Source: Fervidobacterium sp. (GTDB lineage Bacteria > Thermotogota > Thermotogae > Thermotogales > Fervidobacteriaceae). From it: a DNA stretch of 64,000 bases. Below the pieces are notes generated by a model. The model was given only the letters and a program-made list of their open reading frames with translations, made no database searches and was not told the DNA's origin. This document shows, piece after piece, positions 11,111-19,983 of the stretch; positions within the stretch are counted from its first letter, which is position 1, and every line of letters begins with the position of its first letter. The translations under genes and the position numbers were made by a program. The stretch covers positions 1 through 64,000 of the forward strand of contig JANZZV010000006.1 in assembly GCA_026419195.1 (NCBI GenBank), given 5' to 3'.

Positions 11111-12016
11111 TTATTCAATTTTTCTTCCGGTTAGCTTTAGGAAAACATCTTCAAGTGTTGGATGACGAACAACAAAATTGTATACCCCATTTTTAAGCAG
11201 CAATTCTATCGTTTTTACAGAATCCGAAACGTACACATAAGCGTATTCACCTGCGATTATGACTTCTTGTTCAAATTCATAATTATTCTCAAAAATAGCA
11301 GCATATTCTTTTGGAAATTCAATTATAGAGTTTAAACCCGAGGAGACAATAAGCTCATACGGTGAGCCACTTGCTATAATTTTACCATGGTCCATTATGT
11401 AAACTTTGTCTGAAAGTTGGTGGGCTTCGTCCATATAATGTGTGGTCAATACTATAGATTTTCCAAGATCTTTAAACCGCAAGATAATGTCCCACAAGTG
11501 TCTACGTGCATGTGGATCTAAACCAACTGTTGGCTCATCAAGAAAAATTATGTCTGGGTCATTTACAAAAGCCAGAGCAACGGCAAGCCTTTGTCTTTGT
11601 CCACCCGAAAGTTGTTTAACAAGTGCTTTCTTTTTGTCTGACAACTCGAATAAATCGAGAACCTCTTGAATCGGTAATTTTCTAGAGTAGAGGGAAGTAA
11701 ACAATTTCAAAGTTTCAATTACGGTCAAATCTTCAAAAAGAAAGTTCTCTTGAAAACATACTCCTATTCTATCTTTTACGTGTTTGTTTAAAGTATCGAA
11801 CTTTCCAAAGTATGTTATTTCTCCATCATCTTTTTGTCTAAGTCCCTCGATAATTTCAATAGTGGTTGTCTTGCCAGCACCGTTTGGTCCAAGTATTGAG
11901 ATAATTTGTCCTGGAAAGAGTTCGAAAGAGATACCATCTACAGCTTTAACTGAAGAATAGTATTTTTTCAAATTTGTTACCTGTAACACGGGAACTAATT
12001 GAGATTCACTCTTCAA
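11111..12016 (-). CDS. ABC-2 exporter ATP-binding protein
   Basis: About 301 residues of the DrrA/CcmA-like export ATPase type. Walker A GPNGAGKTT, Q-loop CFQENFLFEDLTV, signature LSGGQRQR, Walker B IIFLDEPTVGLDPHARR and H-loop TTHYMDEAHQLSD are all intact. The C-terminal 80 residues form the accessory domain usual in exporters, ending in HPTLEDVFLKLTGRKIE. The likely start is TTG six bases after GAGGTG; a GTG three codons earlier overlaps that ribosome site. It sits between the two permease genes. Confidence 0.9.
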   Translation of the reverse strand: MKSESQLVPVLQVTNLKKYYSSVKAVDGISFELFPGQIISILGPNGAGKTTTIEIIEGLRQKDDGEITYFGKFDTLNKHVKDRIGVCFQENFLFEDLTVIETLKLFTSLYSRKLPIQEVLDLFELSDKKKALVKQLSGGQRQRLAVALAFVNDPDIIFLDEPTVGLDPHARRHLWDIILRFKDLGKSIVLTTHYMDEAHQLSDKVYIMDHGKIIASGSPYELIVSSGLNSIIEFPKEYAAIFENNYEFEQEVIIAGEYAYVYVSDSVKTIELLLKNGVYNFVVRHPTLEDVFLKLTGRKIE

Positions 12017-12074
12017 AGATGCCACCTCACAGTTTTTTAAAATAAATTAAAGTTTACATTTTAGTAGTAAAAAA

Positions 12075-13076
12075 TCAGACAGAAGGTTTTAAAAATTTTT
12101 TCGTTGCATACGCACCGAGTAGTAGACCAGAAACTATAAAAAGCACATTAAGTGAGAAAAAATTAATGTTGCTTATCGATTCTATCCCGTAAACTTTCTG
12201 GAAGAGTATGTGAACGTATCTTGGTGGCATGAGGTAAGAAAGAATTCTAAGAGACGTAGGCAAGAACGAGATTGGAAAATACACACCTGAGAAAAATATG
12301 AAAATTGTATAAAGAAGTGAAGATATACTTTGAGCTGACTTTGCAAATAACAAACTCAATAGTACTCCGATAGATAAATTAAGCATGACAGCAGATATTA
12401 CAACCATTAAAAACAAAGGTAGATGATCGAATTTAACAAATAAATCTACCTTGTAGACAATTTTTGAAAGAAAGAGAATCAATATAGATGAAATAAGCCC
12501 AGTTAAAATTTGCGCACCCGAGCAGCTTAGTAAGAGAACCAATGAATTGACAGGTGTGGTTGCAAAACGCTTAAAAAGTCCATATCTGACGTAATTGGAA
12601 AATATACTTACACCTGCGTTCATACCAATAGAAAGCAAAGATATTGCCATTACTCCTATCATTATGTATTCAAGTTCATTCAGCTCTCTACGAAATTTCA
12701 CAGACCTGTCCGTTATATCAAACACGCTACTTGTAGATTTTGCACTTAAGTATTTGTTTCTAAATAAAAATAACTCTGGTTCAGATTGTGAGATTGTGTT
12801 CAAATAATAAATATCTATCTTGCCATTTTTCGCAATAACAACAATATCTGCTTTCATTTTTTTTATGTCTTGCAAACCATATGGCTCTTGGCTGAGCTTA
12901 GTCCATGATTTATTCTCCATGTAAAGTTCTCTATCTGAATAATATAACACTTTTGAACCGCTACCCTCCGTTCCAAAAATAGACCCAAATAAAAGCATAA
13001 AAACAATCGGAAGAATCAGATTGAGAACTAATGTAAACTTGTTTCTAAAATTCATGACAAGAAATGAATAAAACAA
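12075..13076 (-). CDS. ABC-2 type exporter permease
   Basis: 333 residues with the same plan as the other permease: an N-terminal helix (LVLNLILPIVFMLLFGSIFG), an external loop of about 100 residues, then about five helices including FFSGVYFPISFLPTSLRILSY. It resembles but is clearly not a copy of the permease downstream, so the pair probably makes a heterodimer with one shared ATPase. Start is TTG ten bases after AAAGGAG. It is 30 bases downstream of the large SLH gene. Confidence 0.85.
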   Translation of the reverse strand: MFYSFLVMNFRNKFTLVLNLILPIVFMLLFGSIFGTEGSGSKVLYYSDRELYMENKSWTKLSQEPYGLQDIKKMKADIVVIAKNGKIDIYYLNTISQSEPELFLFRNKYLSAKSTSSVFDITDRSVKFRRELNELEYIMIGVMAISLLSIGMNAGVSIFSNYVRYGLFKRFATTPVNSLVLLLSCSGAQILTGLISSILILFLSKIVYKVDLFVKFDHLPLFLMVVISAVMLNLSIGVLLSLLFAKSAQSISSLLYTIFIFFSGVYFPISFLPTSLRILSYLMPPRYVHILFQKVYGIESISNINFFSLNVLFIVSGLLLGAYATKKFLKPSV

Positions 13077-13106
13077 TATTCATCGACTCCTTTCAGATAA
13101 GTTATC

Positions 13107-16100
13107 TCATTTAAAGATTCCAACAAGAGCAATTATAATTGCTATAATACTTATTAGTATCAAAATATTTTGTGTACTTTGCATTCTTGCACGTTCTTGG
13201 CTTGATTTTTCAAGTTCTTGTTCCAAATACTTTGTTTTCTCTTCAAGCATTTTGATTCTATTAGCAGTTGTAGAAGCTTCATCTTTGTAGGATACTATGT
13301 GCAGATTTATAGTGTTATTCGATTTTTCTATTTGTTGTTCCAAGTTTTGGGTTTTTTCCTCGAGTGTCTTGATACGATCTGTGGCACTCGATAATTCTCC
13401 TCTGTATGAAACTAAGGTATTGTTTGTTTTTTCTACCTGTTGCTCTAAGTTTTGGGTTCTATTTTCAAAACTGTCTTCAAGTGTCTTAATGCGATTCAAA
13501 ATGTTTGATACCTCTTCTTTGTACGAAACTAAATTGTTGTTCGATTTTCGTATTTGTTCTTCCAAGTTTTTGGTTTTATCTTCAAGCGCCTGAATACGAT
13601 TTAAAATACTCAGCACTTCTGCTTTGTAAGAGGATAATGTGTCATTTGATTTTTCTATTTGCTTTTCTGAATTTTCAACTTTTTCTTCGAGAGCTCTGAT
13701 TTTGTTTAGAATGGCAGATAAATCTTCTTTGTAAGTGATTGCTAAGTTTTTTAGGTTGATGTCCTGCTCTTTGAAACTGGTAGTTAAAACATTTGTTTTT
13801 TGTTCAAGTGTTTCTATAATTTTTGAATTGTTGTCTTGTAGGTTCAAAAGTTGCTGGATTGAATTTTCCAAATCTTTCTTCAATATGGACAATTTTTCGT
13901 TAAGCGAATCAAACTGTGTTCCTGAATGTTGCTGTAAATCGTTTAGTTGCTGTAGGTATCTTGCGTTTTCACTCTCAATTTCGTCAACTTTCATGGTAAG
14001 AATTTTTTCAAGTCTCTGGATTTCATTCGGAATTTTTTCAGAAAAGTAAGAGGTTTGAAGTTCCTTTACCTTAGTTATTTCCGATTCGAGAAAAATTGTC
14101 TTTTCCATAAGCTGTGTTAGGATATTTCTTAATTGCTCCAGATCCTTGTTTGGATACGAAAATTCATTAGTTTTTTTCTCTAAAGTGTAAAGCCTATTTT
14201 CCAATTCAGAGTTACGGATTTCAAGTTGGTTCAACTTATTCCTAATCTCTTTTTCTAAAGGAAGCGAGCTGAGTGTTTCTTCGGAAGTCTGATAGGTTTT
14301 GGCCAAACTGTCAAGTCTTTCTGCGATGAACTTGACTTCACTTTTTAAGCTATCTATATTTTTCATGAGATCTTCATTTAAGGCGTAACTTTTATTACTA
14401 ATACCTTCAATTTTTGCATTAATTTCTTCGAGTTTAATTTTCAAGTTTTCTTTTTCAATTGTTGAAAGTTTGTTTTCTAAATTATCAGACTTATCTTTCA
14501 AAGACTTCATAGATATCTTGATATTTTCTAAGTCGCGGAGAAGCTCGTTTTGTTTATTTTGTAAATCATTTATTACCTTTTCGTATTTTATAGAGTTATC
14601 AGTCTGTAAATTTCCAGCTTCCTTTACCATCTTTTCCAAGTCTAACAACATTGAAAGTATTTTTTGAACATTTTGGTTTGTAGAATTAAGCTGAGATGTT
14701 GTAACTCTTTTTTGAACTTCTTCTTCAAGTTTTTTTACTTTGCCTTTTAAATCCGTTACATCTGCTTCTAAAAGAGTCAAAGCTGTGCTCTGTGATATTT
14801 TTGATGTCTCATTGATCAGGTTATTCAACTTTTCATTAATTGAATCTATCTTCTTTGAAAGATTTTGGGTGTATTGCGATAGTTCGGATATCTGTTTGTT
14901 CTTATCTTCCACGTTTTTAATCAACTCGCTTATATAAGATTCATCAATTTGAGCAAATTTTAACTGACTAAGTACTTCTTTCAAGGCTTCGAATTCTTTT
15001 CTTATCTGTTGTATATCATTTTTTGTGGAAGTTTCATTAATATTTGCGACCATCGTTTCTAAGTTCCTAAGTTTTGAGTTTATACTCTCGATTTCTTTTT
15101 CCAGTTGGCTTATTTGCTCGACAGATTCTAATACCATCAAAAACTCAGCAGATGAGTATATTTTTTCTCTCACTTGTTCAACCAATTTCTCTATATCTAA
15201 AATCACTGTTTGATTCTTAGACTTGTCGTCGTATGATTTCTCGGGTTCGTTTTTTCGACTTTCGGAAAGGAGTTTGTCTAATTTTACTTTAAGCTCTTCA
15301 ATCTTTATTTCCAAGTCACTATCTTTGTCTATCAAAGTGCTGCTTAGGGTTCGTACACGTTCTAAATCCGATTCGATTTTCTTTATTTTATCTGCGTGTT
15401 CATTTGTTATGGTAGTAACATTGTAAAGATTCTTAAGTTCAATTCTTAGGTTATCTAAGATACTGAAAACGCTGCTGATTTTTTTCTCCATTTCTGCTAA
15501 ACCACTATCTTCGTACGAACTTAGACTTATTTTTTTAAGGTTATCAATTTCCCCTTTAAGTTTGTTCACTTCGCTTTTTATTTCATTCAATTGTTCTTGA
15601 AGAGTTTTCACATATCTAAGTTGATCTGTTAAACTATCAATCTTTGCGTTTATTGATTTTATCTCTTCGTTATAACTCAGAGCAATAGCCTTTTCTTCAA
15701 CAACGTTGGTAGGAAAACCTGCCAAATTGCTGGTCTGTATAGAATTTAAAATTTCCTGGTATTTATCTTCCAATAGTTTCATCTTTTTTCTAAGTTCTTC
15801 ATCAGTACTTATCAATGATTGTATTTCGCTTTTCAGTAACAATACATTCCTGTTCAACGCCTCTTCGACGCCTTTTACCTTTGCCTCAATGTTTGTGAAA
15901 AGTAACGAAGACTGTTGGTAGTTGTTCTCTATCTCTTTAACTTTGTTCATTAGTGATGAATACTTTGAGTTCAAGCTTTCTACGAGAGATTTAAGGCTGT
16001 CATAGTTCTTCTTTCCTTCGTTTACATCTCCAGCAATTTTGTCAGTTCTACTGCTTAAATTATTTATATCGTTAGTAAGTTTTTTAACATCTTTTGAGAG

Positions 16101-16499
16101 TGATTCAATATAAGCTTTTAAAGAATTAATTTCCGAAGAAAGCTCTTTAATCTGAGAATCGAAAGTAGTAGAGGGTGTTTGGGATGGTAATTTTGAAGAA
16201 AGTTGGCCAGCCATTTTTGCTTCGAGACTTTCTATTTTGCTTTTTAGCTCGTTTACTTTGATGTCAAAGGAGTAGTAAAGTCTGTACATTAAAAGTGCAA
16301 CTTGAAATCTTGTTGTTGCTTCGTTACCTCTGTAAGTACCATCTGGAAATCCACTTACTATGCCAAGCCTTGTTAAGAATTCTACAGCTTCGTATGCCCA
16401 ATGAGATTGTGGCACGTCTTTGTAAGTATCAGCATAAGATGAGTTTGAAGTAAATACCAGAATTAAACCAACACAAATAATTATAAGCGCTTTTTTCAT
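13107..16499 (-). CDS. giant SLH-domain coiled-coil envelope protein (Omp-alpha-like)
   Basis: 1130 residues. A signal peptide (about 1-23, cleavage near SYADTYKD) is followed by one SLH domain (about 24-85) containing DVPQSHWAYEAVEFLTRLG and SGFPDGTYRGNEATTRFQ. About 1000 residues of almost unbroken heptad coiled coil come next, with very few Gly or Pro. A single membrane helix at about 1108-1127 closes the protein. Omp-alpha of Thermotoga has this architecture and spans the space between the cell body and the toga, with SLH on the wall side and the C-terminal anchor in the outer membrane. This copy is far longer than the usual 400 residues. The C-terminal part contains 35-39 residue tandem repeats. 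GGGGGG precedes the ATG and an extended -10 promoter lies just upstream. Confidence 0.92.
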   Translation of the reverse strand: MKKALIIICVGLILVFTSNSSYADTYKDVPQSHWAYEAVEFLTRLGIVSGFPDGTYRGNEATTRFQVALLMYRLYYSFDIKVNELKSKIESLEAKMAGQLSSKLPSQTPSTTFDSQIKELSSEINSLKAYIESLSKDVKKLTNDINNLSSRTDKIAGDVNEGKKNYDSLKSLVESLNSKYSSLMNKVKEIENNYQQSSLLFTNIEAKVKGVEEALNRNVLLLKSEIQSLISTDEELRKKMKLLEDKYQEILNSIQTSNLAGFPTNVVEEKAIALSYNEEIKSINAKIDSLTDQLRYVKTLQEQLNEIKSEVNKLKGEIDNLKKISLSSYEDSGLAEMEKKISSVFSILDNLRIELKNLYNVTTITNEHADKIKKIESDLERVRTLSSTLIDKDSDLEIKIEELKVKLDKLLSESRKNEPEKSYDDKSKNQTVILDIEKLVEQVREKIYSSAEFLMVLESVEQISQLEKEIESINSKLRNLETMVANINETSTKNDIQQIRKEFEALKEVLSQLKFAQIDESYISELIKNVEDKNKQISELSQYTQNLSKKIDSINEKLNNLINETSKISQSTALTLLEADVTDLKGKVKKLEEEVQKRVTTSQLNSTNQNVQKILSMLLDLEKMVKEAGNLQTDNSIKYEKVINDLQNKQNELLRDLENIKISMKSLKDKSDNLENKLSTIEKENLKIKLEEINAKIEGISNKSYALNEDLMKNIDSLKSEVKFIAERLDSLAKTYQTSEETLSSLPLEKEIRNKLNQLEIRNSELENRLYTLEKKTNEFSYPNKDLEQLRNILTQLMEKTIFLESEITKVKELQTSYFSEKIPNEIQRLEKILTMKVDEIESENARYLQQLNDLQQHSGTQFDSLNEKLSILKKDLENSIQQLLNLQDNNSKIIETLEQKTNVLTTSFKEQDINLKNLAITYKEDLSAILNKIRALEEKVENSEKQIEKSNDTLSSYKAEVLSILNRIQALEDKTKNLEEQIRKSNNNLVSYKEEVSNILNRIKTLEDSFENRTQNLEQQVEKTNNTLVSYRGELSSATDRIKTLEEKTQNLEQQIEKSNNTINLHIVSYKDEASTTANRIKMLEEKTKYLEQELEKSSQERARMQSTQNILILISIIAIIIALVGIFK
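13195..13737 (-). repeat. tandem 35-39 residue coiled-coil repeats in the SLH protein
   Basis: Five successive units begin with TYKEDLSAIL, SYKAEVLSIL, SYKEEVSNIL, SYRGELSSAT and SYKDEASTTA. Each continues with a NRI-ALE or DRIKTLE core and an LEQQIEKSNNT-type end. Unit spacing is about 105 bases (35 residues, five heptads) in two cases and about 117 bases (39 residues) in two, so the longer units add a four-residue stutter. Internal duplication by recombination is the likely origin. Confidence 0.8.
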
Positions 16500-16535
16500 G
16501 TTGCTCCCCCCTGCGAATTTTTTTATTCATACTCT

Positions 16536-16544
16536 ATTATACCA
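16536..16544 (-). promoter_or_regulatory. extended -10 promoter for the giant SLH gene
   Basis: On the minus strand TGG-TATAAT (TATAAT at 16541-16536) lies about 37 bases before the start codon. No good -35 hexamer is visible 17 bases upstream, which fits an extended -10 promoter. Confidence 0.6.
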
Positions 16545-16560
16545 GAACACCTCTAATTCA

Positions 16561-18162
16561 TTATACTGAAAAATATCTTCTTATGAATTCGTGGGTTTTA
16601 ATATCAAGTGTTGAGAAATCCTTATTCTTAATACGCTCAGCATTTTTCCTACCTACCCCGGGTATGTTTTCGAGTTCTTGTATAGTTAAATTATTTACAT
16701 TTGTTAATCTAATTCCCGTTAAAGAACGTTGCCCATGCCCTACTATAACAACATCAATAGGTCTCTCATGAACGCCGGGTATACCGATGAGTATAGGATA
16801 TGTTCCAAGAGGTCTCCCAAATGTGACGTTTCCCTCTTTAAATTCAGGTATAACGTAACGTATTATACTACCGGTAGGAAAAACTTTTTTCAACATTGGA
16901 TTATCAACATTTGTGCGTATGAGATATTTGTAATGCTCGAACAACTTTTTGTTGGGTTTTATTGTTTTCCGCTGAGATAAATAATAAAGCGGTGTTTCCG
17001 GAAAGATCATAATCTGTCTGAGGTTTATCCTTCTAAGTAATAAATCGCTGTCCAAATATTCCTTCAGTTTTTCATAATTTATTCGATAGGTTTGCTTGGA
17101 TTCACCAAATAAACCAAATATAAGATTTATTCCTGGGAGTAACTTTGGGATACCATCGTTATCTCTAAATCCGCCTATAGTGTTAACAATTTCTACAGCT
17201 TTATCTATATCTTCAACACTTCCTTCAATATTGTTCTTTTTTCTGACAATTGGGTCGAAAGATTCGACACCAAATGAAAGTATATCTCCCGATGTGTTGT
17301 ATTTTGCTATAACTTCAATTATTTTTGATGATTGTGGTAAGTTTTTTGAAATATAAGTTGGATTGGCATTGTCGGTATGCAAAACACGAATGTCTTTGCA
17401 TCTATCTCTTATACCAGAATACAGCTCATGCACTATTGTTGGGTTTATGGAACCGTTGTTAAAATCACTTCCATAAGCTACTATGTTTGCACTTCTGCCA
17501 AGTCTAAATGATTTTACACCATTTTTGTATAGTTTCTCTATCTCATCTAAAATATCGTTTACAGGCCTTGAAAAAAATTTTGGATAAAGTATTGGTTCGG
17601 TGCAGAATGTACAATACGTACGTCGCTCACAACCAAGCGAAATTTCTATCTCACATATTATGTCAGGATATCTTGGATGTAATCTCACAATCTCTGCACC
17701 TGATAGAGATGCTTTTTTGACTGCATCTGTATATTTAAGTTCTAATTCTTGTGAGATCCACTCGGTAAAATTTACAACTATCTCATCCACGTCAAACTCT
17801 TTTGCAGTGTACTTTGCCCTACTTGCGCCTTTTCCTGCGTAAGCTCTGCCAATGGCACCGATAAGTATGCGGTAAGCTTTTTTGTTTAGAATAAGCAGTT
17901 TCTTAACCTCATCTGGTGTGATGGGAGTACCTCCAACATATCTACCAGGTACCGTAACACCACCAATTATTGTAATTATATCGTAACCAGAAAATGCGTG
18001 CCACATATCGTTGGCACGCACTTGATCTATCGTATAGTAATCCACTTCAAAGCCTTTCATTATGAACAAGCCAGCTGTATACCTTACGTAGGTACTTACG
18101 TACGGAGGTACACCAAGCACTGCTGGTTCGTCCACATAACCATCAATTATCACGCATCGCAT
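16561..18162 (-). CDS. radical SAM protein with C-terminal helix-hairpin-helix (COG1031-like)
   Basis: 533 residues. The first about 130 residues form an alpha/beta domain of the B12-binding-like type (DIITIIGGVTVPGRYVGG). The radical SAM core follows, with cysteines at 178, 184 and 187 (GCERRTYCTFC), a CX5CX2C spacing instead of CX3CX2C; the codons confirm it. FGVESFD and LPGINLIFGLFGES are later core strands. The last 40 residues hold a helix-hairpin-helix (IQELENIPGVGRKNAERI), suggesting nucleic-acid contact. It resembles the uncharacterised COG1031 group known mainly from archaea and Thermotogae. Its start overlaps the upstream LolA/RseB-like gene by 20 bases, behind AAGGAG. Substrate unknown. 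Confidence 0.85.
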   Translation of the reverse strand: MRCVIIDGYVDEPAVLGVPPYVSTYVRYTAGLFIMKGFEVDYYTIDQVRANDMWHAFSGYDIITIIGGVTVPGRYVGGTPITPDEVKKLLILNKKAYRILIGAIGRAYAGKGASRAKYTAKEFDVDEIVVNFTEWISQELELKYTDAVKKASLSGAEIVRLHPRYPDIICEIEISLGCERRTYCTFCTEPILYPKFFSRPVNDILDEIEKLYKNGVKSFRLGRSANIVAYGSDFNNGSINPTIVHELYSGIRDRCKDIRVLHTDNANPTYISKNLPQSSKIIEVIAKYNTSGDILSFGVESFDPIVRKKNNIEGSVEDIDKAVEIVNTIGGFRDNDGIPKLLPGINLIFGLFGESKQTYRINYEKLKEYLDSDLLLRRINLRQIMIFPETPLYYLSQRKTIKPNKKLFEHYKYLIRTNVDNPMLKKVFPTGSIIRYVIPEFKEGNVTFGRPLGTYPILIGIPGVHERPIDVVIVGHGQRSLTGIRLTNVNNLTIQELENIPGVGRKNAERIKNKDFSTLDIKTHEFIRRYFSV

Positions 18163-18877
18163 TTTTAATCTCCTTCATTGTGGATTCCGAGGCTTTGAGA
18201 ACTTTTAAGTAGTAATTTCCTACTTTAAAATCACCAGAAACTTTACTTATTTCTAATTCAAGAGGTTTACCGTCTTTATCATAACCGCTTATTCTTAATG
18301 TATCCTTTACTTCTGAAACATTCGACCACAGAAAAAGTTTGAAAACATTGAAAAATACTTCTGGAATAGGGCTTTCTTCTACAAACTTGTATTTTGAAAG
18401 TATGTTTTTCATATCAAACTGCTTTGGAAATTTATTTATGTACATAGTTGTAGTGACATCACCAACTTTTCTTGTAACTCTTACTATTTCCTTGTCGACA
18501 ACAAAAATTTCTATGGAAAAGAAATCTTCGTTGAACTTGTAAACACCATCTCTTGATATGTCCAATTTTTTCTCTTTTATATATTCATAGGCAACGTCAA
18601 CCAAGTCCTTTATTGGAAACGTTCTCACCAATGTGTTTTTGTCACCAATATACCATCTATCTTTTATCCTTACCCATGTGAAATTTTGAGGCATGCTGAC
18701 AATAACGACCTTTACATCCGCTGTTTCGTAAACTTCCTCCGAACGCATAAAAGTTCCTGACCTGCTGGATTCATAAATCATTCTAACACAATAGCTATCT
18801 GCGAAAAGATGAACTGCAATTAAAACGAAATTTAAAGCTAAAACTTTCTTTCCAATCATTTTTTTAAATCTTTCCAT
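18143..18877 (-). CDS. periplasmic LolA/RseB-like protein
   Basis: About 244 residues with a signal peptide (basic MERFKKMIGKK, hydrophobic core, cleavage near HLFADS). The mature part has strand-rich segments such as FTWVRIKDRWYIGD, VYKFNEDFFSIEIFVVD and VTRKVGDVTTTMYIN, which recall the LolA/RseB lipoprotein-like fold. The call is by pattern and context, since no diagnostic motif exists. It follows an ECF sigma factor and a single-helix anti-sigma candidate, the place RseB holds in E. coli. I start at the ATG preceded by GGGTGAG; a longer frame overlapping the anti-sigma gene lacks a ribosome site. Confidence 0.55.
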   Translation of the reverse strand: MERFKKMIGKKVLALNFVLIAVHLFADSYCVRMIYESSRSGTFMRSEEVYETADVKVVIVSMPQNFTWVRIKDRWYIGDKNTLVRTFPIKDLVDVAYEYIKEKKLDISRDGVYKFNEDFFSIEIFVVDKEIVRVTRKVGDVTTTMYINKFPKQFDMKNILSKYKFVEESPIPEVFFNVFKLFLWSNVSEVKDTLRISGYDKDGKPLELEISKVSGDFKVGNYYLKVLKASESTMKEIKNAMRDN

Positions 18878-18932
18878 GATTTTGCTCACCCGTTTTTTGA
18901 TGATCTTTTTAACTTGGTAATTATAATAAATA

Positions 18933-19367
18933 CTACCAACCATTGTCATTTGCTATTGAGACGTATCTTATAATTTTAAATACTTTATCAACTTCCTCGT
19001 TAAATGCAGCATTTTCATCACTTTCGATGTTCTTCTCACTGAAACTCAGGTCAAATGTTTTTGCTGGGATGTTTGTTTTCAAATTAAAGCTTGTTTTATT
19101 TTCATTTTGGACAAGCTGATTCTCAAAATTTTCGGAAAGCGAGAAAACTTTACCAAATTCTTTTACTATGGCTTGGTGCGGGCCTAAGAACACTGCAATG
19201 AGCAATATAAAGACTACAACACTCAATCTATAAAAAATTACCAAGCGCTTTTGCTTTCTAATGCACTTTACTATCTTTTCTTCCATCAAAGGGCCTGGTT
19301 TATAGCTAAAACTTACGGAGACAGTTTTAAGAATTTGTGAAAACCTTTTATCTTTCTCCTCATTCAT
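18933..19367 (-). CDS. candidate membrane anti-sigma factor
   Basis: 144 residues. A cytoplasmic N-terminal part of about 40 residues (MNEEKDKRFSQILKTVSV) is followed by one membrane helix near residues 42-60 (RLSVVVFILLIAVFLG), then an external Asn/Lys/Glu-rich domain. Single-pass topology, size and an eight-base overlap with the sigma gene (ATGAATGA) are what anti-sigma factors show. No zinc-binding HxxxCxxC motif is present. The ribosome site AGGAGG lies inside the sigma gene end, so translation is coupled. No sequence family is recognised with certainty. Confidence 0.65.
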   Translation of the reverse strand: MNEEKDKRFSQILKTVSVSFSYKPGPLMEEKIVKCIRKQKRLVIFYRLSVVVFILLIAVFLGPHQAIVKEFGKVFSLSENFENQLVQNENKTSFNLKTNIPAKTFDLSFSEKNIESDENAAFNEEVDKVFKIIRYVSIANDNGW

Positions 19368-19983
19368 CTCTCGTAACCTCCTCAAGTGCTTTTCTTATCT
19401 TTTCCTTTATGTAATGTAATCTGCTTTTGACTGTACCTTCCGGCTTTTTAAGTATGTTTCCTATTTCTTCATAGGTTAAACCGTCTATTTCTTTCATAAA
19501 CAAAAGTGCTCTGTCTTCAGGATTTAGTGTATCTAAAGTTTTTCTCAGCTTTTCATATAAAATTTCATCTGCCACATTCTTCTTCACGTCTTCTTCTGTC
19601 GGAAATTGATACGTGTATTCATCGCTCTCGTTTGATTCAGTAATATCCATAATTATTCCTTTGCTTTTTAGTTTTTTATAAACATTGTTACAAACATTAA
19701 CTGTTATACGATAAATCCAGGTTGATAATTTAGACTCCCCTCTGAATTTTTTGATATTTTTGTAAATTCTCAAAAATACTTCCTGAATAACATCATCTAT
19801 ATCATCAGTTCCGAGATAACTTTTAACAAGTGCACCTATCTTTGGTGCGTAAGTCTTGTACAGGTACCTATAAGCTTCCTCGTCGCCTTTTGATAGAGCC
19901 TTAATAAACAAACTTTCATCCTTCCAAGTATTTTGACCTTGATTCTCTTCACTACGTTCATTCCTGCTGTTAGAAAATTCCAA
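19360..19983 (-). CDS. ECF-family RNA polymerase sigma factor
   Basis: 207 residues. Region 2 runs over about residues 40-105 with YRYLYKTYAPKIGALVKSYL, DDIDDVIQEVFLRIYKNI and FRGESKLSTWIYRITVNVC. A linker of about 35 residues follows. Region 4 runs over about 145-200 with TLNPEDRALLFMKEIDGLTYEEIGNIL and a helix-turn-helix ending in PEGTVKSRLHYIKEKIRK. The TTG start follows GGGGGG inside the end of the DUF72 gene, a 14-base overlap. The anti-sigma candidate directly after it suggests control by an envelope signal. The target promoters cannot be read from this window. Confidence 0.93.
   Translation of the reverse strand: MEFSNSRNERSEENQGQNTWKDESLFIKALSKGDEEAYRYLYKTYAPKIGALVKSYLGTDDIDDVIQEVFLRIYKNIKKFRGESKLSTWIYRITVNVCNNVYKKLKSKGIIMDITESNESDEYTYQFPTEEDVKKNVADEILYEKLRKTLDTLNPEDRALLFMKEIDGLTYEEIGNILKKPEGTVKSRLHYIKEKIRKALEEVTRDE

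What the first reader, a model, noticed from the sequence alone, without database searches (positions are those of the whole stretch)
17595..17640. Radical SAM cluster motif with CX5CX2C spacing
The codons at this site read GCERRTYCTFC, so the first spacing is five, not three. A few radical SAM enzymes with altered spacing (such as HmdB, CX5CX2C) are known. Combined with the N-terminal B12-like domain and the C-terminal HhH it suggests a distinct reaction.
Basis: partly seen in the sequence, partly recalled or inferred. Interest (0 to 1): 0.55.

Follow-up and report, generated by a model that had tools for sequence, protein, structure and literature searches.

The report
Radical SAM enzyme with variable cluster loop
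The unusual cysteine spacing is real but is just one of five loop lengths in a widespread, uncharacterised archaeal and Thermotogota enzyme family, which may possibly be the unknown maker of a chemically mysterious base in the ribosome's decoding centre.

Summary
In detail: the 533-codon minus-strand gene at 16561-18162 reads GC-ERRTY-C-TF-C, i.e. CX5CX2C (codons 17602-17631). The interpretation does not. In 191 distinct homologues collected here the three cysteines are kept, but the first gap is 3 (84), 4 (16), 5 (68), 6 (13) or 7 (10) residues. Full-length haloarchaeal homologues, 39-44% identical and with a HhH-like tail, carry the canonical CX3CX2C. On a tree built without the loop, its length changed at least nine times. 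So CX5 is neither an isolated insertion nor a sign of a distinct reaction. The family (COG1031 by recall) is a radical SAM enzyme with a MiaB/MgmA/AprD4-like two-domain body and usually a C-terminal helix-hairpin-helix. It was found in 88 of 103 Thermotogota genomes, 376 of 392 relatives of a haloarchaeal genome, and 11 of 287 other bacteria. In one haloarchaeal genome it is one of two radical SAM genes without an NCBIfam family, and by far the closest radical SAM match to Thermotoga. I infer a nucleobase or nucleic-acid modifier. The boldest open reading is that it makes N-330, the unexplained cytidine at 16S position 1404 of Haloferax volcanii and Thermotoga maritima.

The parts
   Evidence: ORF; Pfam PF04055 1e-11; homologues
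17713..18162 (-). N-terminal Rossmann-like domain (about residues 1-150), B12-binding/UPF0004-like fold, no cysteine conserved in all rows
   Evidence: model; VIA-align; conservation
16813..17670 (-). radical SAM barrel (about residues 165-450)
   Evidence: Pfam; model
17602..17634 (-). GCERRTYCTFC, the [4Fe-4S] cysteine motif, CX5CX2C (C178, C184, C187)
   Evidence: cysteines 122 of 122
17614..17628 (-). five-residue loop between first and second cysteine; 3-7 residues in the family
16627..16701 (-). C-terminal helix-hairpin-helix (residues 488-512)
   Evidence: Pfam HHH E 0.00039, under cut-off; family members to 1.4e-6
18143..18949 (-). upstream ORF overlapping the start codon of the radical SAM gene; about 240-aa protein with a hydrophobic, signal-like N-terminus, no known family
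   Evidence: homologue detected in 23 of 29 loci of the window's order
18933..19385 (-). small ORF with one hydrophobic stretch between the sigma gene and 18143-18949
   Evidence: detected in 9 of 29 loci
19360..19983 (-). ECF-type sigma factor gene, first gene of the conserved cluster
   Evidence: Pfam; homologue in the flank of 29 of 29 loci of the window's order

Best explanation
The motif is an ordinary radical SAM [4Fe-4S] site whose first inter-cysteine loop is allowed to vary in length. Shown: the three cysteines with CX2C, and nearly always a following CxE, are kept while the loop is 3-7 residues. Inferred from established radical SAM chemistry: the three cysteines hold a site-differentiated [4Fe-4S] cluster that cleaves SAM to the 5'-deoxyadenosyl radical, as HcgA does with the same CX5CX2C spacing; the loop sits outside the reaction. 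Inferred with less certainty: the substrate is a nucleobase in nucleic acid, most likely RNA. The two-domain body is that of MiaB/RimO-type and B12-type radical SAM enzymes, a helix-hairpin-helix tail would grip the polymer, and the deep Streptomyces branch, which lacks the tail, sits among nucleoside-metabolism genes and so may act on a free nucleoside.
For: Loop variation: 191 distinct sequences, lengths 3/4/5/6/7 = 84/16/68/13/10 (with L199). Tree of 122 rows with the loop residues removed needs at least 9 length changes, Thermotogota one clade (SH-aLRT 98) with lengths 5 (37 rows) and 6 (12 rows). Cys 178/184/187, E171, R199, E207, R220, G222, H262, D264, N265, E300, N346, R378, N380, R382 in 122 of 122; E189 in 121. 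CX5 and CX3 models find the same best folds: MgmA Z 21.5 and 21.7, RimO 19.5 and 18.7, AprD4 19.2 and 19.8, MiaB 18.6 and 19.1. PMC10100467 passages: HcgA with CX5CX2C has a [4Fe-4S] cluster and makes 5'-deoxyadenosine. QueE: canonical site with one extended loop (PMC4389238 passage). HhH; tails of 40 or more residues in 113 of 122. Streptomyces gene cluster: PfkB and Nuc_deoxyrib_tr over cut-off, kinase-like (dNK/thymidylate kinase) and MazG-like matches under cut-off, radical SAM members without HhH.
Against: No experiment shows a cluster or a substrate. Both models are only moderate (mean pLDDT 68.9 and 69.7) and low at the loop, so geometry is not shown. HhH tails bind DNA at least as often as RNA (recalled), and a loose HhH core pattern was found in only 90 of 122 tails. 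In the window's order the gene follows an ECF-sigma gene cluster, which suggests envelope-stress regulation rather than RNA modification. Among 82 loci compared, no specific gene kept a fixed place beside it across groups; the widest cluster was ABC-transporter-type ATPases, 12 loci of 4 groups at scattered positions. The Streptomyces branch is far away and may do something else.
Confidence: 0.5

Rival explanations
1. Same ordinary cluster site, but the enzyme is a cobalamin-dependent (or B12-fold) radical SAM enzyme acting on a protein or small molecule, like MgmA or AprD4; the HhH is a dimerisation or accessory element.
For: Best fold and best profile match is MgmA (Foldseek 1.5e-15, Z 21.5, profile 1.3e-10); best NCBIfam model of the Thermotoga member is TIGR04013 B12_SAM_MJ_1487 (79.7 bits, cut-off 251).
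Against: No Pfam B12-binding match in the window protein or in the nine A2 members; all NCBIfam matches of three family members far below cut-off; no conserved protein partner found next to the gene.
Confidence: 0.25
2. DNA repair or DNA-base chemistry: the HhH binds DNA and the radical reverses or processes a lesion, in the manner of spore photoproduct lyase.
For: HhH weakly resembles ComEA/RecR types; a Cdc6-like ATPase gene is next downstream in 4 archaeal loci (label recalled from the sequence, not searched).
Against: Spore photoproduct lyase is a distant fold match (Z 10.9); a neighbour in 4 of the 82 loci compared is weak.
Confidence: 0.12
3. One reading: CX5CX2C marks a distinct reaction that depends on the altered spacing.
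For: HmdB/HcgA share the spacing and do unusual chemistry.
Against: Lengths 3-7 occur inside one family with the same architecture; CX3 haloarchaeal members are 39-44% identical to the window protein; HcgA resembles HydE/BioB instead.
Confidence: 0.04

Closest known systems
MiaB/RimO/MtaB methylthiotransferases
   Same: Rossmann N-domain plus radical SAM barrel; within the motif the alignment to TM_1862 needs one two-residue gap; Z 17.7-19.5
   Different: No three conserved N-terminal cysteines for a second cluster, no TRAM domain match in Pfam at E <= 1, CX3CX2C in MiaB/RimO, 39.8 bits against a 251 cut-off
MgmA (MJ_0865-type Mcr glutamine C-methyltransferase) and other B12 radical SAM enzymes
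   Same: best fold and profile match
   Different: No Pfam B12 domain match; 22.3 bits against cut-off 360 for TIGR04014; HhH tail
HmdB/HcgA
   Same: CX5CX2C spacing (passages read)
   Different: HcgA is similar to HydE/BioB and makes a pyridinol; here the spacing is one of five lengths
COG1031 (radical SAM with C-terminal HhH; name recalled, no COG library here)
   Same: this protein and its homologues fit that description
   Different: nothing seen; 0 papers in the held library hold the term

Membership tests
radical SAM superfamily | PF04055 match over the curated cut-off | tested here: met
   45.7 bits, cut-off 29.5; 9 of 9 members of A2 match
radical SAM superfamily | three conserved cysteines for the cluster | tested here: met
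   122 of 122
radical SAM superfamily | binds [4Fe-4S] and cleaves SAM | not testable with these tools
   needs EPR/Mossbauer and HPLC
MiaB/RimO methylthiotransferase | second cluster bound by three N-terminal cysteines | tested here: not met
   only C178/C184/C187 in all rows; the other cysteine columns over 30% are C170 (82 of 122) and the column of V15 (47 of 122)
MiaB/RimO methylthiotransferase | NCBIfam TIGR00089 over cut-off | tested here: not met
   39.8 bits, cut-off 251
cobalamin-dependent radical SAM | N-terminal B12-binding domain by sequence profile | tested here: not met
   no Pfam B12 match at E <= 1 in the window protein or in 9 members
cobalamin-dependent radical SAM | B12-binding fold | tested here: inconclusive
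   aligned to MgmA, OxsB, TsrM from the first residues, but equally to MiaB, RimO and AprD4
HmdB/HcgA | CX5CX2C | tested here: met
   but not diagnostic,
HmdB/HcgA | HydE/BioB-like sequence and hcg gene cluster | tested here: inconclusive
   no hcg-like named family among the NCBIfam matches of the window protein; whether NCBIfam holds such a model was not checked, and the hcg genes were not searched for
COG1031 | radical SAM domain plus C-terminal HhH, archaea and Thermotogota | tested here: inconclusive
   domains; distribution; no COG profile available here

The most novel reading that the evidence does not exclude
This family is the missing enzyme for N-330, the cytidine derivative of unsolved structure (Mr 330.117) at 16S rRNA position 1404 in Haloferax volcanii and Thermotoga maritima. 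It would build a C3H5NO2 substituent, perhaps an alanin-3-yl group joined through carbon to C5 of the base, by radical C-C bond formation in the decoding centre.
Probability: 0.17. Interest if true: 0.8.

Novelty: new member of a known kind. Interest (0 to 1): 0.45.

Why it matters
It removes a tempting but wrong inference (spacing implies new chemistry) and shows that loop length is a poor guide inside a radical SAM family. More usefully, it puts a very common haloarchaeal and Thermotogota enzyme without a function beside an rRNA nucleoside for which I found neither a structure nor an enzyme in the held papers; the link can be tested with one gene deletion in Haloferax volcanii, or with Thermotogota that seem to have lost the gene (nine genomes of 99% completeness).

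Tried and rejected
Viral and phage relatives: none confirmed (IMG/VR pattern scans; phage records). Conserved gene neighbours: among 82 loci no specific gene kept a fixed place across groups; clusters seen in three or more groups were ABC-type ATPases (12 loci), a response-regulator-like protein (5), a small HTH regulator-like protein (4) and an isoleucyl-tRNA-synthetase-like protein (4), the last three labelled from sequence by recall. A TRAM-protein homologue lies in the flank of 48 of 80 haloarchaeal loci, 35 of them within 250 bases downstream, but of 41 within 1500 bases only 27 are on the same strand, and 1 of 51 other loci has it, so I do not treat it as an operon. Lipid synthesis shared by archaea and Thermotogota (membrane-spanning lipids) was considered and set aside because haloarchaea do not make tetraethers (recalled). 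RseB-like identity of the upstream protein: not supported by Pfam or PDB profile search. Reading loop geometry from the models: dropped, pLDDT under 50 there. Literature: COG1031 gave 0 papers. N-330 searches gave Grosjean 2008 (PMC2584109) alone. Searches gave listings (51 showed 25 of 104, 98 showed 15 of 21, the rest in full) in which no title or abstract start named an enzyme for it. Passages searched in PMC7694415, PMC11698992 and PMC7897474 said nothing of N-330. The two primary N-330 papers (Kowalak 2000, recalled; Guymon 2007, seen only as a reference in PMC2584109) were not read; the latter is not held.

Full report
The observation. The gene is a 533-codon ORF on the minus strand, 16561-18162. 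The motif reads GCERRTYCTFCTEP: first cysteine C178 at 17629-17631, C184 at 17611-17613, C187 at 17602-17604, so CX5CX2C as claimed. The ORF matches Pfam Radical_SAM over its cut-off, and within the motif its alignment to Thermotoga TM_1862 needs one two-residue gap between first and second cysteine.

Is the spacing a signature? A profile search of the loci then held gave 209 ORFs, 191 distinct after merging copies. First spacing: 3 in 84, 4 in 16, 5 in 68, 6 in 13, 7 in 10 (the 68 include L199, missed by the pattern and read). The 84 with CX3CX2C are 79 loci titled as haloarchaea and 5 unnamed loci that group with them on the tree. The set is uneven: it depends on which loci were fetched, and the 84 are near relatives of one another. 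With these thinned to 15, the 122-row set holds 15, 16, 68, 13 and 10 for lengths 3 to 7. On an IQ-TREE quick tree (LG+G4) with the loop residues removed, length needs at least nine changes; Thermotogota form one clade (SH-aLRT 98) that holds 37 rows with 5 and 12 with 6. Several long branches meet in that tree, so single joins are unsure; the count of changes is a parsimony minimum. The three cysteines stay fixed in 122 of 122 and the glutamate two after the third cysteine in 121. So CX5 is a normal length in this family, not an isolated insertion and not a mark of separate chemistry.

Architecture. Rows within 1 of each other are tied. Thus the N-terminal domain is of the B12/UPF0004 Rossmann type; Pfam finds no B12-binding domain by sequence, and AprD4 and MiaB (no cobalamin, as I recall) fit as well as the cobalamin enzymes. 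The methylthiotransferase second-cluster cysteines are absent. The C-terminal HhH is weak in the window protein and clearer in some relatives; 9 of 122 rows lack a tail, one of them because its contig ends (L021).

Distribution. In Thermotogota 88 of 103 genomes hold it at E <= 1e-20; of the 15 without, nine are 99% complete and belong to three genera of one family, and six are 60-98% complete. Among 287 other bacteria, 11 hold it. In the Halobacteriota sample 182 of 246 hold it (completeness of these genomes is not told), and of 392 relatives drawn around a Natronorubrum genome 376 do (the tool tells no group for these, so that they are haloarchaea is my inference from how relatives are drawn). 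Other archaeal phyla could not be reached. Three genomes, G090, G092 and G093, have a stretch 100% identical to T. maritima TM_1862 and all carry the gene at 48% identity; so T. maritima very probably has it. Five named Haloferax species (L101-L105) and Haloferax sp. Q22 (L097) carry it; H. volcanii itself was not named in any hit. That E. coli and Thermus lack it was not tested.

An orphan among radical SAM genes. One haloarchaeal genome (G348; its family protein is 89% identical to Halolamina salifodinae) has ten Radical_SAM matches, nine over the Pfam cut-off; the tenth, at 24.7 bits, is the RaSEA gene. Eight score over the cut-off of an NCBIfam model: MoaA, e-MtaB, LipA, CofG, Elp3, CofH, RaSEA, and TIGR04053, a model whose name tells no function. 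The two without any are this family and a 332-aa protein, L228. So function is open for three of the ten. Against the 36 Radical_SAM matches of the T. maritima-group genome G092, this family is by far the closest pair: 44% over 544 residues, 5e-149, reciprocal best; the next is the e-MtaB pair at 32% (9e-52), the TIGR04053 protein reaches 24% over 334 residues, and L228 has no match.

What it may modify. The Streptomyces plasmid members are a distant branch without the HhH. Two annotated loci and, read by eye, one unannotated locus show them beside a kinase of the PfkB family, a nucleoside 2-deoxyribosyltransferase and small unnamed genes; in the one locus scanned these are an arylmalonate-decarboxylase-like protein and, under cut-off, kinase-like and MazG-like proteins. 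That suggests a nucleoside substrate for that branch, and, with the HhH tail elsewhere, a nucleobase in a polymer. This is inference. Against it: in the window's order the gene follows an ECF-sigma cluster (sigma homologue in 29 of 29 loci, the ORF next upstream in 23 of 29, the small ORF in 9 of 29), which hints at stress regulation and says nothing of RNA.

The bold reading. Grosjean 2008 (PMC2584109, passages read) lists a cytidine of unknown structure, N-330 (330.117), at H. volcanii 16S C1352 (E. coli 1404), the same in T. maritima, gene unknown. The only CHNO addition to cytidine within 6 mDa, in the ranges I enumerated, is C3H5NO2, which equals serine minus water or an alanin-3-yl group in place of H. 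Coureux 2020 (PMC7005279, passages read) modelled P. abyssi C1378, the same site, tentatively as 5-hydroxymethylcytidine, yet did not see that nucleoside by mass spectrometry and noted an unknown modification there in some archaea; it lists E. coli, yeast and human as unmodified C and T. thermophilus as m5C. A C5-CH2 start of a larger group would fit. If N-330 is made by a radical SAM enzyme, this family is the strongest candidate from the comparison of G348 with G092. But N-330 may not need a radical enzyme at all (a PLP-type addition of serine is conceivable), Grosjean also says N-330 is found in many bacteria, which fits the rarity of this gene in other bacteria poorly, the sigma-factor neighbourhood does not suggest it, and many genes are shared by archaea and Thermotogota through transfer (recalled). 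I put it at 0.17.

Verdict. The spacing is real and ordinary. The interest lies in the family: conserved, common, unassigned, and with one concrete, testable suggestion.

Noticed in passing
window 18143-19983 (minus): ECF sigma factor, small ORF with one hydrophobic stretch and a protein with a signal-like start and no known family precede the radical SAM gene; sigma homologue in the flank of 29 of 29 loci of the window's order and the last protein in 23 of 29, a layout like rpoE-rseA-rseB.
   Followed up: partly
L054, L055, L056 (Streptomyces plasmids), about 11400-17200: Distant radical SAM homologues lie first in a same-strand gene run with PfkB and nucleoside 2-deoxyribosyltransferase genes; in L054 also arylmalonate-decarboxylase-like and, weakly, kinase-like and MazG-like genes; possible nucleoside pathway.
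   Followed up: partly
L228 880-1875 (minus), genome G348: 332-aa radical SAM protein, the other one of the ten in this haloarchaeal genome without an NCBIfam family at its cut-off; motif CDQRDCFYC.
   Followed up: partly
G035-G037, G047-G052: Nine Thermotogota genomes of 99% completeness, one family and three genera, have no match to the family at E <= 1e-20: likely loss.
   Followed up: no
L053 7983-9710 (same plasmid copy as L058) and L057: Natronorubrum bangense has two copies of the gene, one on the chromosome and one on an 828-kb plasmid, with equal match scores to the window protein.
   Followed up: no
window 13107-16499 (minus): 1130-aa protein with one S-layer homology domain and long coiled-coil-like stretches, directly downstream of the radical SAM gene.
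   Followed up: no
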